Below, one piece after another: positions 3,696 to 32,049 of a stretch of DNA of 32,134 nt. A model generated the notes under the pieces. That model was not told the DNA's origin and did not search any database. It worked only from the letters and a program-made list of their open reading frames with translations. The stretch is from Methanocella sp. PtaU1.Bin125 (GTDB taxonomy: Archaea > Halobacteriota > Methanocellia > Methanocellales > Methanocellaceae): contig MVRA01000214.1 in the NCBI GenBank assembly GCA_002067315.1, forward strand, positions 1-32,134. Direction: 5' to 3'. Made by a program: the position numbers and the translations under genes. Every line of letters starts with the position of its first letter. Position 1 is the stretch's first letter.

Positions 3696-4209
3696 GATGA
3701 AAACGCCTCCGCTGTTTTCATACTACACGTTTCTCCCCGCGGATGTTATACGTTAGGCGAGATCGCGGCGGAGTCCGGCAGTTACCGGGTGCCAGGGGGA
3801 ATCACAGATGCCACAGGGCACACAGAGGCCGCACGGAGGACGTTATAGTCGTTTCTAAATGCTTTTAAACAGAGGCGCATTCCTGCAGGCAGGAAAGCAT
3901 GACAGGCCGGGCCCCCGGGACGCGGGGCATGCCGTGCCCCCGATAATCGGCCCTTCCCGGTCGATCTAAGGGACCCCTCCGGGTCGATCTAAGGGACCCC
4001 TCCGGGTCGATCTAAGGGACCCCTCCGGGTCGATCTAAGGGACCCCTCCGGGTCGGTCACGCGCGCACTCGAGGCCGCCGATGCCGACGGCTACCCGTCT
4101 GAGCGATTATAGAAAATGGCACGAAAGCGCCGGCGGGACGTTTTTGGGGGTTATGTCAACTGTATGTGGCGCTTCCGTGCCGATGGCATATCGCATAATT
4201 TTGACTGGC
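3696..4209. other. Gene-free interval with repeats
   Basis: This 514-bp space separates the aldolase operon from the Nudix gene and has no credible coding frame. At 3800-3840 there is a run of degenerate 'cacag' words (cacagatgccacagggcac and following), the same type of short A/G-C word seen in other intergenic spaces here. At 3961-4052 lies a perfect tandem repeat (separate entry). The remainder, 4053-4209, is GC-rich and unremarkable. Confidence 0.6.
3961..4052. repeat. Tandem repeat, four copies of a 23-bp unit
   Basis: The unit begins 'tcgatctaaggg' and ends 'acccctccggg'; it occurs four times without a single difference at 3961-3983, 3984-4006, 4007-4029 and 4030-4052. A degenerate partial copy (ggcccttcccgg) precedes it at 3949-3960, and 'tcggtcac' follows. 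Each unit carries complementary 'cccggagg/cctccggg'-like halves, so the array could fold into short hairpins. Perfect identity between units implies recent expansion. The unit is not a multiple of three and the array lies between genes. Confidence 0.95.
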
Positions 4210-6010: not shown

Positions 6011-6664
6011 TCAGTCCCTGCGCTTTATGACGCGCCGCTCCATGAGCAGCGCTTTCGTCCGGAGGTGAAAAACGGGTGACGAGAGACGGCCGAACGGCCG
6101 GGTGCGGTGCCCGAGGAGGGCCTCCCGCAGATCGTCGCCTTCTTCGATCAGCGTGCAGGCGTTGCCGATCTCCCCTCCGAAGTGCGCGTCGCTGCCGCCC
6201 GTCTTCGCCCGGTCGAACCGGCCGGCATAGATGTCGGCCGCGGCGTTCGACCGCCGGAAGACACACCGGGCGTTAACCACTTCGACGCCGTCGATCAGCC
6301 GGGCGTCGCGGTCCGTGAGCCAGAACGCCGATCCCCGGATGCTGTCGAAGGGATGCGGCACCACCGCCACCCCTCCCTGCGCATGTATCTCCTCGATCAC
6401 GGACGCATGGTCTTTCGACTTTATCTCTTCTGTCAGGAAGAGACCGATCACGTCGCCCCGGTCCGTGTTCACCTCGCAGCCGCAGATGACGTCCAGTCCT
6501 TCCGGCTTCAGCTTCAGGGCTTCGAGCCCTCCCCTGACCGTGTCGTGATCGGTGATCGCGATGCCGTCCAGGCCGCGTTTTTTAGCGATGCGGAAGATGT
6601 CACGGACATCCAGCGTGCCGTCAGGCGAATAGCGCGAGTGGAGGTGAAGGTCGTATTTTAACAT
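6011..6664 (-). CDS. PHP-domain metal-dependent phosphoesterase
   Basis: This 217-residue protein has the four PHP motifs: 'DLHLHSRYSPDG' (motif I, 5-16), 'AITDHDTVRG' (motif II, near 37-46), 'GGVAVVPHPFD' (motif III) and 'TGGSDAHFGGEIG' (motif IV). The metal-binding His and Asp residues are intact. Members act as nucleoside 3',5'-bisphosphate or other phosphoesterases in the cytoplasm; the exact substrate is open. The ATG at 6664 follows AAAGGTAAGCTC, a clear ribosome-binding site. The C-terminus is basic (RRVIKRRD). It lies 58 bp upstream of the degenerate hydrolase gene on the same strand and may be co-transcribed with it. Confidence 0.9.
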   Translation of the reverse strand: MLKYDLHLHSRYSPDGTLDVRDIFRIAKKRGLDGIAITDHDTVRGGLEALKLKPEGLDVICGCEVNTDRGDVIGLFLTEEIKSKDHASVIEEIHAQGGVAVVPHPFDSIRGSAFWLTDRDARLIDGVEVVNARCVFRRSNAAADIYAGRFDRAKTGGSDAHFGGEIGNACTLIEEGDDLREALLGHRTRPFGRLSSPVFHLRTKALLMERRVIKRRD

Positions 6665-6862
6665 GAGCTTACCTTTATGAAGAGTGATAGATACCTATCC
6701 GCTGCTATTCTAAATATTTTAGGGCTCCTGCCGGGGTAATTCCGTGCTGGATACCTGCGGTAATCACAGGGCTACAGAGAGCACAACGGACATAATGTGG
6801 CAGATTATAGGATTGGCCCCATAGCCATATTTAATGGGTAATCAATGCACCTCTGTGCTCTC

Positions 6863-6984
6863 ATGAAACGCTGATGTGCCTGATGCACAGGCATTTACGA
6901 TGAAAATCTTTAAAGTCTTTAGTATGAAAAACGTTCAGAATTTTCATTGTATATGCCTGTGCATCAGGCACATTAGCGTTTCAT
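6863..6984. repeat. Long inverted repeat, 32-bp arms
   Basis: Left arm 6863-6894 (atgaaacgctgatgtgcctg...) and right arm 6953-6984 are reverse complements at 31 of 32 positions. The single difference would be a G-U pair in RNA. Inside the 58-nt loop, 'atgaaaat' (6900-6907) and 'attttcat' (6940-6947) extend the pairing. The right arm runs directly into copy A of the dispersed element. Confidence 0.95.
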
Positions 6985-7168
6985 ACGAAAAATTCGTCGG
7001 ATTTGCGCGCCGGGATTTGTCTTTTGCCGCCTTCGGCGGGCCCTTCGTACTACCCTCCCTCCCGCCCCTGGCGCGCTGGCACGCGCGACTACGTTTCTGG
7101 CGACAGGGCTTACCCGTTTTTCATCATCTATACCTGACCAAAATCCCGGTCATCGACTGACTCTCTAT
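6982..7168 (+). repeat. Dispersed intergenic element, copy A
   Basis: This stretch is homologous to 31699-31884. Over 7025-7076 versus 31740-31791 there are only 3 substitutions in 52 positions. Over 7118-7165 versus 31835-31882 about 40 of 48 positions agree. The middle parts (41 and 43 bp) have diverged. Both copies contain the hairpin 'gccgccttcggcggg' and a 'tgacc-N8-ggtca' palindrome. A one-base indel near 'tcgtcg(g)attt' breaks any shared reading frame, so the element is probably noncoding. The strand is arbitrary. Confidence 0.9.
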
Positions 7169-7185
7169 GGCCCCTGTAGTTTTAT

Positions 7186-7200
7186 AGTAAAATAAAAAAA
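7186..7200 (-). terminator. T-rich terminator after the thermosome gene
   Basis: On the minus strand, 'tttttttattttactat' begins about 15 nt after the TAA of the thermosome gene. Oligo-T runs are the usual transcription stop signal in Euryarchaeota. No strong hairpin precedes it. Confidence 0.6.
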
Positions 7201-7215
7201 GATGGAGGGCCGGGT

Positions 7216-8907
7216 TTAGAACCCGCCCATGCCGCCCATGCCGCCCATGGCGCCCGGGCCTCCGCGGCGCATGTGGGCGAGCGACTGCTGAGCCGATGCC
7301 TGTGCAGCCGCGATCTCCTGCTCGCTGAAGCCGCCCGACGCGATGACATCGTCGATGCGCAGGATCATGACCGCGGCTTCGGCCGCCGAGCTGACGACCT
7401 GCGTCTTGACCCGCAGCGGCTCGATGACGCCCTGCTTGAGCATGTCCACGGGCTTGCCTTCATAGACGTTCAGGCCGAAGTTTTTGCCGTCCTTCTTTTC
7501 GTGCCTGCTACGGAGCGCGACCAGCATGTCGATGGGATCCAGGCCCGCGTTTTCGGCTATCGTGCGCGGGATGACGTCCAGCGCGCTGGCGAACGCCTCG
7601 ACGGCCATCTGCTCCCGGCCGCCCACCGTCGCCGCAAATGCGCGCAGCCGCAGGCCGACCTCGATTTCCGGGGCGCCGCCGCCGGCCACGATCTTGCCGT
7701 CCTCGACGGCCACGCCGGTGACCCGCAGCGCGTCGTGCACCGCGCGCTCGAGCTCGTCGATCACCGTATATGTGCCGCCCCGCAGCAGGATAGTGAGCGC
7801 CTTCGGGTTTTTACAGCCTTCGACGAACATGAGCGTGTCCTCGCCCGTGACCCGGCGTTCCTCGACCAGCGCTGCGGCGCCCAGGTCTGCCGCGGTGATC
7901 TCTTCCAGCTTGGTCACGATGCGGCCGCCCGTGGCCTTCGCGAGCTTGTTCATATCCGTCTCGGAGACACTCTTGACCGCGAAGATGCCTTCCTTCACGA
8001 GGTAATTGGCCATCAGGTCTTCAATGCCCTTCTGGCAGAACACCACGTTGGCGCCGCACCCGGCAATCGCCGCGACCTTCTTCTGGAGCTGCTCGTTCTC
8101 CTGGTCCAGGAAGCTCTTCATCTGCTCGGGCTTGCGGATCTTGATCGAGGTGTCCGCGCCGATCTTGCGCACCTCCAGCGGCAGGTTGACCAGCAGGATC
8201 TTCGCGTTCCTGACCGACTTCGGCATGCCCTCGCTGGCCCGCTTCTTGTCGAACACGATACCCTTGACCAGCTCGGAGGCCATGATGCCCGGCCCGACCT
8301 TCTTCTCGACCTTGACGTTACTGACGTCCACCTTGCCGTTCTCCTCGACCGCGATCACGGCGTCGACGGCCAGGTCCGCCAGCATTTTGCCGGTCCCTTC
8401 CGCGACCTTGCCGGTCATGGCGGTCATGGCGATTTCCCTTAGCTGGGCCTTATCGGTCTTGTTCACGGAGATAGCCATGTTGCCGAGGATCTCCTTCGCC
8501 TTCTCCGCCGCCGTCCGGTAGCCGGTCGCGATCACGGTCGGGTGGATCTCCTGGTCGATGAGCTCTGATGCCTTCTTCAGCAGCTCCCCCGCGAGCACGA
8601 CGGCCGTCGTCGTCCCGTCGCCCGCCTCGTCGTCCTGGGTCTTCGCCACCTCGCAGATCATCTTGGCCGCGGGGTGCTCGATGTCGACCTCCCGCAGGAT
8701 CGTCGCGCCGTCGTTCGTGACGGTCACGTTGCCCGTCGGGTCGACCAGCATCTTGTCCATGCCCTTCGGCCCGAGCGTGGACCGGACCGCCTCGGCTACT
8801 GCCATTGCGGCCATGATATTGTAAGACTGAGCTTCTCTGCCCCGGGAGCGGGTGCTCCCTTCCTTGAGAATGTACACTGGCTGACCGCCAGCCTGTTGGT
8901 TGGCCAA
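7216..8907 (-). CDS. Thermosome subunit (group II chaperonin)
   Basis: The 563-residue protein is full length for an archaeal group II chaperonin. It has the ATP-binding '[12 protein letters not shown]' and 'NDGATILRE' near residues 45-72, the catalytic '[15 protein letters not shown]' near 95, and the C-terminal ATPase segment '[16 protein letters not shown]'. The tail ends in the typical glycine/methionine repeat GGMGGMGGF that projects into the cavity. It forms a double-ring ATP-dependent folding chamber in the cytoplasm. The start is TTG at 8907, supported by GGAGGGAT 5-12 nt upstream; no ATG is available at this position. Monocistronic with its own promoter. Whether it is the alpha or beta type cannot be decided here. 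Confidence 0.97.
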
Positions 8908-12522: not shown

Positions 12523-12548
12523 TTTTTTTAATTTTCCTAACGTTTTTT
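12523..12548 (+). terminator. T-rich stop after the DUF2150-like gene
   Basis: Two oligo-T runs, 'ccttttttta' and 'cgtttttta', follow 23-47 nt after the TAG and lead into the inverted repeat at 12548. Oligo-T tracts of this kind terminate transcription in Euryarchaeota. Confidence 0.6.
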
Positions 12549-12705
12549 AATATCCTTGGCGCTCTTGGCTTCCTGGCGCCCTTGGCGAGCGTGACAGGAG
12601 TCGCATTGCCCTGACAAGGTTTGCGTCGCTATTGTGGTTTCGGGTATTCGACTACTGTCACGCGCGCCAAGGGCGCCAGGAAGCCAAGAGCGCCAAGGAA
12701 TATTA
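12548..12705. repeat. Long, nearly perfect inverted repeat, about 50-bp arms
   Basis: Left arm 12548-12597 (taatatccttggcgctcttg...) and right arm 12655-12705 are reverse complements with one extra A and one or two mismatches. The loop is 57 nt. The arms are built of repeated 'cttggcg' words. The repeat lies exactly between the convergent ends of the DUF2150-like gene (+, ends 12500) and mfnE (-, ends 12725), so a role as a two-way terminator or RNA end-protecting hairpin is plausible. Confidence 0.97.
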
Positions 12706-12724
12706 AAAGAATGTCTTTTAGGTG

Positions 12725-17201: not shown

Positions 17202-17548
17202 CGGCTAATAGTTCGCCTCATGGACTATTTACTTTTTGTGCCGGAAACCCGCGTCCAAGCCGCCAGGCGGCCAGCAAGCGTCGTCAGGTGCAGGCGGATG
17301 ATCGGAACAATGGCCCGGCAATAACGATGAAAAACAGGCAGGTCTGTCGTCGCTCCCCCGGGCGACCGCGCCTGCGCGTGCGTGACCGCAACGCAGGTTG
17401 CTCGTGTGTACAACGCAGGTTGCTCGTGTGTACAACGCAGGTTGCTCGTGTGTACAACGCAGGTTGCTCGTGTGTACGGCGCAGGTTGCCCGTCTCTACG
17501 TCCGCCCGATGATTGCTGATTTGGTTGATTTTTTCATAGGGCGGCCTA
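17202..17548. other. Gene-free interval with a 22-bp tandem repeat
   Basis: The 347 bp between SRP19 and the response regulator gene hold no credible gene; short open frames here are created by the tandem repeat at 17390-17499. The segment 17225-17390 is GC-rich and otherwise unremarkable. Plus-strand oligo-T at 17520-17537 (tttggttgattttttcat) lies near the end of the regulator gene but on the opposite side of its transcript. Confidence 0.55.
17390..17499. repeat. Tandem repeat, five copies of a 22-bp unit
   Basis: The unit starts 'aacgcaggttg' and ends 'ctcgtgtgtac'. Copies at 17390-17411, 17412-17433, 17434-17455 and 17456-17477 are identical; the fifth (17478-17499) has four to five changes (ggcgcaggttgcccgtctctac). 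The graded decay at one edge is usual for an array expanding from the inside. The unit is not a multiple of three. Confidence 0.95.
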
Positions 17549-23293: not shown

Positions 23294-23587
23294 ATGGCAG
23301 GTTGTGGATGTGGCTGCGGTGGTGCGGCGACGAAGCCCAAGAAGGCGGCGGCGAAGCCCGTAGCAAAAGCAGCGGCAAAGCCCGCAGTAAAAGCAGCGGC
23401 AAAGCCCGCGGTGAAGGCGGCGGCGAAGGCTCCGGCAAAGAAGACGGTAGCCAAGCCCGCAGTGAAGAAGGCCCCCGCGAAGAAGACGGTAGCCAAGCCC
23501 GCGGTGAAGGCGGCGGCGAAGGCTCCGGCCAAGAAGACCGTGGCCAAGAAGGCTCCGGCGAAGAAGGCGGCGCCCAAGAAGAAATAA
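23294..23587 (+). CDS. Histone-H1-like Ala/Lys/Pro-rich basic protein with a CxCxC head
   Basis: The 97-residue protein starts MAGCGCGCGGAATKPKK, with cysteines 4, 6 and 8 separated by single glycines. Everything after residue 13 is made of Lys, Ala, Pro, Val and Thr in repeated words such as 'KPAVKAAAK' and 'APAKKTVAK', ending KKAAPKKK. The tail resembles the C-terminal domain of eukaryotic linker histones and bacterial HC1/AlgP-type proteins and would be unfolded and DNA- or RNA-binding. The head could hold a metal or form disulfides. The ATG at 23294 is preferred over the GTG at 23285 because GAGGTGAG precedes it. Codon repeats within the gene show growth by duplication. Function unknown; I infer a nucleoid- or nucleic-acid-binding role. 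Confidence 0.75.
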   Translation: MAGCGCGCGGAATKPKKAAAKPVAKAAAKPAVKAAAKPAVKAAAKAPAKKTVAKPAVKKAPAKKTVAKPAVKAAAKAPAKKTVAKKAPAKKAAPKKK

Positions 23588-23816: not shown

Positions 23817-23853
23817 TATCGTGTCAAGGACCAACTATTGCACGTCTCCTGGA

Positions 23854-23926
23854 CGTTTTCAGGCAGTGTCTCTACGGGCTGCCTGCGCCACGTTTTCAGG
23901 CAGTGTCTCTACGGGCTGCCTGCGCC
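23854..23926. repeat. Direct duplication, 37-bp unit
   Basis: The unit starts 'cgttttcaggcagtg' and ends 'ctgcctgcgcca'. The copies at 23854-23890 and 23891-23926 are identical over 36 bases. Each carries 'aggcag...ctgcct', a 6-bp stem with a 12-nt loop, so the pair would form two identical hairpins in RNA. Confidence 0.95.
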
Positions 23927-24083: not shown

Positions 24084-24141
24084 ATTTATATGATAGAACC
24101 TGTTTATTGTACCACGGTTTCGTTCGCGGGATCCGTCCCGC
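24084..24141 (+). promoter_or_regulatory. TATA box and leader hairpin of the L15e/exosome operon
   Basis: A TATA-like 'atttatatg' at about 24084-24092 predicts transcription start near 24112, leaving a leader of about 97 nt before L15e. Within it, 'gcgggatccgtcccgc' (24126-24141) is a perfect 6-bp stem with a TCCG loop. A long structured leader ahead of a ribosomal protein gene could allow autoregulation; that is an inference. Confidence 0.5.
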
Positions 24142-24208
24142 CGGGATGTGGCCGATCCGTCCGGACCGGTTGAACCACGAAACGCAAACGCACAGGAGAC
24201 ACGAAACT

Positions 24209-30912: not shown

Positions 30913-31289
30913 ATGAATTGCCACCGCAGATACAGAACCAGCTGGCGCAGCTGCAGCAGGTGCAGCAGCAGGCGCAGGCGCTGATCCAGCAGAAGGGGCA
31001 GGTCGAGATGCTGCTTCGCGAGACGGAGCGCGCGCTCGAGGAGCTCAAGAAGAGCCCCGAGGACGCCGACGTGTACCGCGCCGCCGGCGAGCTGCTGATC
31101 AAGGCGAAGCGTGAGGACGTGCTGAAAGACCTCGAAGAGAAGAAGGACAACTTCGACGTCCGGCTCAAGTCGCTCTCCCGCCAGGAGGAGCGCGTCCAGC
31201 AGCGGTTCAACCAGCTGCAGGACCAGCTCAAGCAGGCGCTGGGCAAGATGCAGGGTGCTGGCGCAGGCGCCGGGCCCCGCGCCGAGTGA
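30909..31289 (+). CDS. pfdB: Prefoldin subunit beta
   Basis: A 126-residue protein dominated by two long coiled-coil helices, rich in Gln/Leu ('QIQNQLAQLQQVQQQAQALI' and the returning helix 'QQRFNQLQDQLKQALGKMQG'), joined by the beta hairpin 'KKSPEDADVYRAAGELLIKAKREDVL'. With prefoldin alpha it captures unfolded proteins and passes them to the thermosome. The C-terminus is short and Gly/Ala-rich. The gene has the usual place after pcc1. Confidence 0.96.
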   Translation: MNELPPQIQNQLAQLQQVQQQAQALIQQKGQVEMLLRETERALEELKKSPEDADVYRAAGELLIKAKREDVLKDLEEKKDNFDVRLKSLSRQEERVQQRFNQLQDQLKQALGKMQGAGAGAGPRAE

Positions 31290-31309
31290 ACCCGTACCGG
31301 GTTAAGTCT

Positions 31310-31546
31310 ATGAAAGACGAAGAAGTGATCGCGGCGGTCTACGATACCGCCGTCGACTACATTTATTCTGTCGTGCCCGCCAAGCGGATCGACGACCTGG
31401 ACGTTTCTGTCGGACTTGAGGATAAAGAGATCTCCATCGACATCCGGCTCATCACCGACCGCGGCGAAGAGATCGACCAGCGCACCGTCGACGAGGCTAT
31501 CAAGATCGCCTCCGAGAAGGCCGACGCGCTGCTGCAAAAACGCTGA
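31310..31546 (+). CDS. DUF3194-like small protein
   Basis: The ATG at 31310 gives a 78-residue protein (MKDEEVIAAVYDTAVDYIYS), and I prefer it to the GTG at 31286, which overlaps the prefoldin stop. The sequence 'LDVSVGLEDKEISIDIRLITDRG' followed by 'VDEAIKIASEKADALLQKR' has the alternating pattern of the archaeal DUF3194 family, found after prefoldin beta in many Euryarchaeota. It resembles a small Pcc1-like alpha/beta fold in layout, but that is only by eye. Function unknown. Last gene of the superoperon. Confidence 0.8.
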   Translation: MKDEEVIAAVYDTAVDYIYSVVPAKRIDDLDVSVGLEDKEISIDIRLITDRGEEIDQRTVDEAIKIASEKADALLQKR

Positions 31547-31556: not shown

Positions 31557-31611
31557 TAGCACGGGCTCGCTGATCAGTCTCTCTTTAAGCTATGCTTCTA
31601 TAGATGCCGCC

Positions 31612-31700
31612 AGGACGCCAGGGCACCAGGAGCATCAAGTTTTGTTTAGGTAACGGTATCCAATAGCCATATCTGAAAACCCCTGGCGCCCTGGCGTTCT
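31612..31700. repeat. Inverted repeat, about 21-bp arms
   Basis: Left arm 31612-31632 (aggacgccagggcaccagg...) and right arm 31680-31700 are reverse complements with about three mismatches; the loop is about 47 nt. The words 'gccagggcgcc' link it to the repeats at 10112 and 12548. The right arm passes directly into copy B of the dispersed element. Confidence 0.85.
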
Positions 31701-31884
31701 ATGAAAAACTCGTCGATTTGCGCGCGGGGATACGTCGTATGCCGCCTTCGGCGGGCCATTCGTACTACCCGCCCTCCCGCCCATGGCGCGCAGCGCTATT
31801 CGAATTGAAGAGACATTTGGGGGAGAGTCATCCCTTTTCATCATCGCTACTTGACCATGGCCCCGGTCATCGACCGACTCTCAT
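31699..31884 (+). repeat. Dispersed intergenic element, copy B
   Basis: Homologous to 6982-7168 in the same orientation. The two conserved blocks are 31740-31791 (49 of 52 positions identical) and 31835-31882 (about 40 of 48). It keeps the 'gccgccttcggcggg' hairpin and a 'tgacc-N8-ggtca' palindrome (tgaccatggccccggtca). It follows an inverted repeat just as copy A does. Confidence 0.9.
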
Positions 31885-32049
31885 GAAAATAACGCGCAGG
31901 CGTCCCTTGTTAACGGGGAGGGCGGGCAGCGCACAGCCTCCGCCGGAGGCGGGGATGCGACGAGGACGGGCGCACAGGCTTCGACGTAGCAGACCTGGTT
32001 GGCACATCACCACGTTTTTAATTAGACACAGGGTGCGTGCATACATCAA

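What the first reader, a model, noticed from the sequence alone, without database searches (positions are those of the whole stretch)
6982..7168. Two-copy noncoding element, each copy directly behind an inverted repeat
6982-7168 and 31699-31884 are clearly homologous. One block has 3 differences in 52 bp and another about 8 in 48, with a diverged 41-43 bp middle. Both carry a 'gccgccttcggcggg' hairpin and a 'tgacc-N8-ggtca' palindrome. A one-base indel makes a shared reading frame unlikely. In both places the right arm of an unrelated inverted repeat leads straight into the element, which suggests a composite mobile or structured-RNA unit rather than chance.
Basis: seen in the sequence. Interest (0 to 1): 0.55.

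Follow-up and report, generated by a model that had tools for sequence, protein, structure and literature searches.

The report
Archaeal mosaic repeat with covarying hairpin
The two look-alike noncoding stretches are two of well over a hundred copies of a patchwork DNA repeat scattered between the genes of this archaeon; its tail is a small hairpin that related species also carry in many copies, each with its own matching pair of letters, which points to an undescribed family of selfish, probably mobile, DNA.

Summary
In detail: 6982-7168 and 31699-31884 are homologous far beyond chance. They are not a two-copy unit. The same element ('A') has at least 53 BLAST places in its own genome; its 3' block ('T', ~50 nt with TGACC-N8-GGTCA) has 131 pattern places against 4 for a reversed control. 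Copies are intergenic, in both orientations to genes, and sit head-to-tail with other dispersed modules; the inverted repeats beside both window copies are such modules. A has no BLAST match in 59 other genomes, but T is family-wide: 24 places in the same-genus genome, 32 in another genus, 0 in the third relative, 0 in 27 further genomes. Stem pair 4 is C-G, T-A or G-C by genome; within the own genome stem changes favour G-U wobbles on one strand. Best reading: a non-autonomous REP/NIME-like mosaic repeat spread by recognition of the folded T hairpin. Mobility and its enzyme are inferred: no terminal repeat or target duplication, no reverse transcriptase, one IS200-type transposase. No description found in print.

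The parts
6982..7168 (+). A element, copy 1 (5' block, variable middle, 3' T block)
7026..7040 (+). GCCGCC-TTC-GGCGGG hairpin of the A 5' block
   Evidence: read; first three stem pairs the same in 35 of 35 copies
7117..7166 (+). T block, the module shared with other genomes
   Evidence: covariance model R1, E 1.4e-16; this copy is one of the rows the model was built from
7135..7152 (+). covarying stem TGACC-N8-GGTCA of T
6863..6984 (.). module B followed by inverted module B (58-nt arms, 6-nt gap), directly left of copy 1; B is itself dispersed (36 hits in the 96 stretches)
31699..31884 (+). A element, copy 2
31741..31755 (+). GCCGCC-TTC-GGCGGG hairpin, copy 2
   Evidence: read
31834..31885 (+). 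T block, copy 2
   Evidence: covariance model R1, E 2.4e-13; this copy is one of the rows the model was built from
31852..31869 (+). covarying stem TGACC-N8-GGTCA, copy 2
31601..31700 (.). C-type module (GCCAGG ... CCTGGC stem) directly left of copy 2; its left arm is hit by the C model
31880..31980 (-). weak inverted partial A 5' block right of copy 2
   Evidence: 18 bits; also called

Best explanation
T-bearing modules start at a pyrimidine-rich step followed by (A)TGAAA and end in the T block, a ~50-nt sequence carrying a 5-bp hairpin with an 8-nt loop. The most likely mode of life is that of a non-autonomous mobile repeat: a trans-acting recombinase or single-strand transposase recognises the folded T hairpin on one strand and places new modules next to short CTC-like sites, including those at the end of older T blocks, which builds head-to-tail arrays. 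Shown: copy number, intergenic placement, head-to-tail order, restriction to one family of archaea among the genomes searched, genome-specific compensated stem variants, strand-specific wobble tolerance, and absence of the element at the two matching loci of the same-genus genome. Inferred: that it moves, that the hairpin is the recognition signal, and that an enzyme (not identified) acts in trans.
For: Copies: 53 BLAST places with 40 of 134 candidates scored; 131 T-pattern places vs 4 control; all 150 scored candidates of the own genome match model R1. Intergenic: 0 of 61 A and 0 of 129 T overlap predicted genes, after 6 of 135 pattern hits inside coding-like DNA had been dropped; T orientation to co-directional neighbours is 26 sense and 26 antisense. 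Head-to-tail: T followed by A5 in the same orientation 25 times, opposite-orientation A5/T neighbours 3 times. T found in 3 of 4 genomes of the family, 0 of 27 others. Stem: pair 4 is CG 30, UA 14, GC 12 among 57 distinct rows; 95.8% of cells paired vs 84.7% shuffled, 30 two-sided cells vs 7.3, 0 of 500 shuffles reach either; slid controls at most 62% paired. Own genome: 62 wobble-making vs 15 mismatch-making transitions at equal numbers of sites, flank ratio 1.02; by distinct stems 29 vs 10. The thermosome-side gap is 551 bp here and about 175 bp without the element in G001; behind the Pcc1-like gene G001 has no A or T in the stretch read. T lies within 300 bp of a contig end 35 of 142 times vs 5.8 expected, so the assembly tends to break at these repeats.
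Against: No target-site duplication (1 of 14 hand-listed A units, 2.3 expected by shuffling) and no terminal inverted repeat. Only one Y1 transposase in the genome, with no resemblance of its flanks to T by eye. No reverse transcriptase in G000 or G001. Other recombinases (IS110, tyrosine and serine types) were not searched. The empty-site comparison uses another species, so loss cannot be told from gain, and the breakpoints are not base-exact. Repeats could also have spread by recombination or gene conversion.
Confidence: 0.6

Rival explanations
1. The T block is a functional small RNA or RNA-level regulatory hairpin; copies have spread because transcripts or mRNA ends use it.
For: Strand-specific wobble tolerance and two-sided compensation across three genomes are what an RNA hairpin gives.
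Against: No orientation preference to neighbouring genes: 26 sense, 26 antisense. The whole element folds weakly. No Rfam family reaches its gathering score in 6800-7215; the sub-threshold hits are mostly plant and animal miRNA models on the long B hairpin. A single-stranded DNA hairpin tolerates G-T as well (recalled).
Confidence: 0.2
2. Passive repeats: T and the other modules spread only by recombination, gene conversion and slippage between intergenic repeats, as in NIME-like arrays, with no dedicated enzyme; the palindrome may be a protein-binding or integrase target site.
For: Mosaic composition and shared junction motifs; same palindrome geometry as dRS3, ATTCCC(N8)GGGAAT (PMC3898611, passages); tandem arrays elsewhere in the window.
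Against: A double-strand dyad does not predict the one-sided wobble bias (62 vs 15). Copies occur between unrelated flanking sequences, which simple conversion between arrays does not explain.
Confidence: 0.17
3. Chance similarity or an assembly artefact.
For: Many copies lie at contig ends.
Against: Local score 149 vs shuffle maximum 30; homologous T families in two other genomes, one of them a single contig.
Confidence: 0.01

Closest known systems
Neisserial intergenic mosaic elements (RS units plus dRS3)
   Same: Intergenic mosaics of unlike short units together with a ~20-bp palindrome with an 8-base spacer (ATTCCC-N8-GGGAAT there, TGACC-N8-GGTCA here), in arrays of some hundred bases (PMC3898611, passages).
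   Different: No sequence relation; an archaeal genome; here the palindrome lies at one fixed end of the module, covaries between genomes and shows strand-specific wobble; no phage integration at T was seen.
REP / BIME / REPIN with RAYT transposases
   Same: High-copy extragenic hairpins in mosaics, with species-specific stems.
   Different: No GTAG in 135 T sequences. CGTC, the other REP tag, occurs somewhere in 48 of 135, but not at a fixed stem-flanking place by eye. Head-to-tail dimers are absent or rare in most GTAG families (PMC3733652, passages), while here head-to-tail is the rule. No transposase flanked by T was found.
MITEs of DDE or IS200/IS605 elements
   Same: Short, non-coding, dispersed, with a hairpin close to one end.
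   Different: No terminal inverted repeat and no target duplication; no parent element found; a single IS200-type transposase.
Transposed non-coding satellite family of Methanocella conradii (Fam_27_37_5)
   Same: Dispersed non-coding repeats in an archaeal genus that may be this one (PMC6749651, abstract and passages).
   Different: Listed there as tandem repeats with repeat length over 30 nt; the sequence was not seen, so whether it is related is unknown.
IS110/IS1111 elements with seekRNA or bridge RNA
   Same: Only an analogy: site-specific movement guided by a structured noncoding part (PMC11187229 and PMC11208160, search listing only).
   Different: No DEDD transposase was looked for; A has no open frame kept across copies.

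Membership tests
REP/BIME | GTAG or CGTC tetranucleotide at one end of the palindrome | tested here: not met
   GTAG in 0 of 135 T sequences; CGTC in 48 of 135 but not at a fixed stem-flanking place by eye
REP/BIME | RAYT gene flanked by the repeat | tested here: not met
   one Y1_Tnp gene in the genome, its flanks show no T block by eye
REP/BIME | high-copy extragenic palindrome | tested here: met
NIME | short units in intergenic arrays with a spaced palindrome | tested here: met
   (as architecture only)
NIME | dRS3 sequence itself | tested here: not met
   T stem is TGACC/GGTCA or its variants
MITE (DDE type) | terminal inverted repeats | tested here: not met
   end-to-end score not above shuffles, 96% of shuffles as high
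MITE (DDE type) | target-site duplication | tested here: not met
   1 of 14 equal, 2.3 expected
IS200/IS605-derived element | ends related to a Y1 transposase element in the same genome | tested here: inconclusive
   only one such element, no resemblance by eye
Retrotransposed (SINE-like) element | reverse transcriptase in the genome | tested here: not met
   no RVT_1 match in G000 or G001; control genomes ring in 3 of 14
Structured RNA family (Rfam) | match above a curated gathering score | tested here: not met
Structured hairpin under selection | two-sided compensatory changes beyond controls | tested here: met
   rival hairpin GGTC/GACC fails
Structured hairpin under selection | transcription | not testable with these tools
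   no RNA data

The most novel reading that the evidence does not exclude
The T hairpin is the recognition end of an undescribed archaeal mobilisation system that acts on one folded strand. In each lineage of the family an enzyme (or a guide RNA) and the hairpin have shifted specificity together (C-G, T-A and G-C at stem pair 4), each time amplifying a different set of passenger modules onto the same conserved T end, so that one ancient end-signal drives independent bursts of selfish intergenic mosaics.
Probability: 0.3. Interest if true: 0.75.

Novelty: new variant of a known kind. Interest (0 to 1): 0.55.

Why it matters
Mosaic intergenic repeats with a common palindrome are well described in bacteria, but I found no description for this archaeal family. 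A hairpin kept by compensatory change while it amplifies separately in three genomes is a clean natural test of what recognises such repeats, and it makes the open question of how mosaic repeats without an obvious enzyme spread directly testable. It also offers one reason why this genome is in 219 contigs: T lies near contig ends about six times as often as expected.

Tried and rejected
Protein-coding origin: no frame kept across copies, lengths even modulo 3. Reverse-transcriptase spread: no RVT_1 in G000 and G001. DDE-type MITE: no terminal repeat or duplication. Rival hairpin GGTC-N3-GACC inside T: 71.6% paired, no better than shuffles. C/D-box RNA on the reverse strand: a weak sub-threshold sR3 hit and a UGAUGA-like string, but most G002 copies lack that string. 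Plasmid or phage origin: no match in 72,556 plasmid and 50,697 phage records; none in viral contigs for the exact T pattern. Other genomes in the 84,980-species collection: three single matches in bacteria, taken as chance; own and near records may be left out there. A strongly folded whole element: mean z -1.09 on + and -0.74 on -. The variable middle as a conserved hairpin: z 0.08 on +. RNAalifold on A beat column shuffles, but that control does not discount conserved palindromes, so I gave it no weight. My first wobble count had a register error and was replaced. Module seed E gave no hits.

Rows dropped or selected: 6 of 135 T pattern hits that lie in coding-like DNA were dropped by eye before the counts; locus L072 was left out from then on because it overlaps L033; A1 used 36 own and 8 G001 rows, A2 30 own, 15 G001 and 18 G002 rows, chosen by hand out of 129, 19 and 34 available; the 14 A units were listed by hand out of 37, and for one (L067) the script read the left site in the wrong register. 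Three G002 loci (L168, L170, L175) were printed at a wrong offset; their T blocks are correct. Gene calls come from my own dicodon script, not a standard gene finder; for G001 it was trained on only 13 open frames.

Full report
Observation. The two stretches are homologous: blocks of 77 and 48 nt at 90% and 83%, 148 of 197 aligned columns identical, local score 149 against a maximum of 30 in 2000 resampled pairs. The hairpin, the palindrome, the diverged middle and the lack of a shared frame are as described.

Copy number. Copy 1 finds 53 places in its own genome with 40 of 134 candidates scored, copy 2 finds 53 with 40 of 144 scored. The 3' block pattern with up to 3 mismatches gives 131 places against 4 for the reversed pattern. 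The covariance model R1 matches all 150 scored candidates of 2618, so the true count may be higher. The 'two-copy' element is a high-copy family.

Anatomy. I call the element A and its last ~50 nt T. A module scan of 96 own-genome stretches gave 77 A 5' blocks, 142 T, 49 D, 54 G, 36 B, 60 F1, 63 F2, 27 C and 29 H hits (some families overlap in sequence). D and G are other modules that end in the same T block. B is the inverted repeat left of copy 1, C the GCCAGG stem left of copy 2. Neighbours run head-to-tail: T is followed by A in the same orientation 25 times, while opposite-orientation A/T neighbours occur 3 times. Left ends of A, B and many members of other modules show a short pyrimidine run followed by ATGAAA, and T is followed either by such a start (56 of 119) or by other DNA, often CTCTGCG.

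Place in the genome. By a home-made dicodon gene finder, 0 of 61 A copies and 0 of 129 T copies overlap predicted genes; 6 of 135 T pattern hits in coding-like DNA had been dropped beforehand. Of 84 T copies with both neighbours predicted, 52 lie between co-directional genes (26 in sense, 26 in antisense), 20 between convergent and 12 between divergent genes; 45 lie at the edge of a stretch. Convergent over divergent is only a weak excess (P 0.06 for the own genome; 0.014 with G001 added). T lies within 300 bp of a contig end in 35 of 142 cases against 5.8 expected.

Other genomes. A BLAST match to A occurs in 0 of 59 other genomes, among them one of the same genus and two of the same family. 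T does occur: the same-genus genome G001 has the variant TGATC-N8-GATCA (17 of 19 fetched copies exact), and G002, another genus of the family, has TGAGC-N8-GCTCA (32 of 34 places). Model R1 finds 24 places in G001, 32 in G002, 0 in G003 and 0 in 27 further genomes of the phylum. R1 was built from own and G001 rows, so those match by construction; G002 is the independent find. The model rewards pairing, but the G002 palindrome is plain in the sequence, and alignment A2 was made by sequence only.

Hairpin. On A2 the stem is paired in 95.8% of cells against 84.7% in shuffles, with 30 two-sided cells against 7.3; no shuffle of 500 reaches either. Pair 4 is C-G in 30, U-A in 14 and G-C in 12 of 57 distinct rows; slid controls stay at or below 62% paired. 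The measures that count pairs or pair types do not exceed shuffles (71 and 321 of 500 as high). The pair-4 changes separate by genome, so they are few events, not 26. Within the own genome a different, finer test is possible: among 129 copies, transitions in the stem that keep a G-U wobble number 62 and those that break the pair 15, at equal numbers of sites; in the unpaired flanks together the two kinds are equal (ratio 1.02, but 0.67 upstream and 1.64 downstream taken apart; Fisher P 6e-6 for stem against flanks). Copies are related, so counts overstate independence; by distinct stem pairs the ratio is 29 to 10. The reverse strand would predict the opposite bias, so selection appears to act on the folded + strand, as RNA or as single-stranded DNA.

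Empty sites. Window copy 1 with its B modules lies between a gene at 6011-6664 and the thermosome-like gene at 7216-8877 (names recalled from the look of the sequence). In G001 the same two genes are adjacent with about 175 bp between them and no element, against 551 bp here. Behind the Pcc1-like gene (31286-31546) G001 has CTCTGTG-type repeats but no A or T in the stretch read. This shows that the copies were gained here or lost there; it does not give the direction.

How it probably works. Dispersal without orientation bias, head-to-tail joining at a common end and a strand-specific folded end suggest a non-autonomous mobile repeat recognised at T. Against a classical transposon: no terminal inverted repeat and no target duplication. 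Against reverse transcription: no RVT_1. A single-strand (HUH) or other site-specific recombinase fits best, but the one Y1 transposase seen shows no T at its flanks by eye, and other recombinases were not searched. I therefore put 0.6 on the general statement and less on any enzyme type.

Known relatives. The closest architecture is the neisserial intergenic mosaic with its dRS3 palindrome ATTCCC-N8-GGGAAT (PMC3898611, passages), the closest lifestyle that of REP elements (PMC3733652, passages), from which T differs by the missing GTAG tag and by head-to-tail order. PMC6749651 (abstract and passages) reports one transposed non-coding satellite family in Methanocella conradii; its sequence was not seen. 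PMC12306157 (passages) surveys REPs in bacteria and archaea; Methanocella occurs 0 times in it. Searches for a description of this family returned none; most subscription papers are outside that library.

Noticed in passing
window 12544-12708: Inverted repeat with 63-nt arms made of two opposed F2 modules (CTTGGCGCTC... type), another dispersed family of this genome.
   Followed up: partly
window 17323-17498: Head-to-tail copies of a 22-nt unit (CAACGCAGGTTGCTCGTGTGTA), next to a G-type module; similar tandem units occur at several other loci.
   Followed up: partly
window 3944-4058: Head-to-tail 23-nt units (TAAGGGACCCCTCCGGGTCGATC) in an intergenic gap; not placed in any module family.
   Followed up: no
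window 23853-23926: Exact 37-nt tandem duplication upstream of the eL15-Euryarchaeota ribosomal protein leader match at 24127-24181.
   Followed up: no
window 23341-23587: Gene end made of degenerate short repeats, looking like a basic, Ala-Lys-Pro-rich low-complexity tail.
   Followed up: no
L125-L142 (G001): G001 has its own mosaic of CTTGGCG-type units, CCTCCCAGACCTCC-type units and T blocks, i.e. a parallel repeat system with other passengers.
   Followed up: partly
L157-L186 (G002): In G002 some 150 nt upstream of T are also shared among most copies, and T ends sharply at TTTCGTGG before TGAAA.
   Followed up: partly
L113 158-673 (-): The only IS200-type Y1 transposase gene found in the genome, next to a gene that looks like a DNA methyltransferase or restriction enzyme (the second name recalled).
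   Followed up: partly
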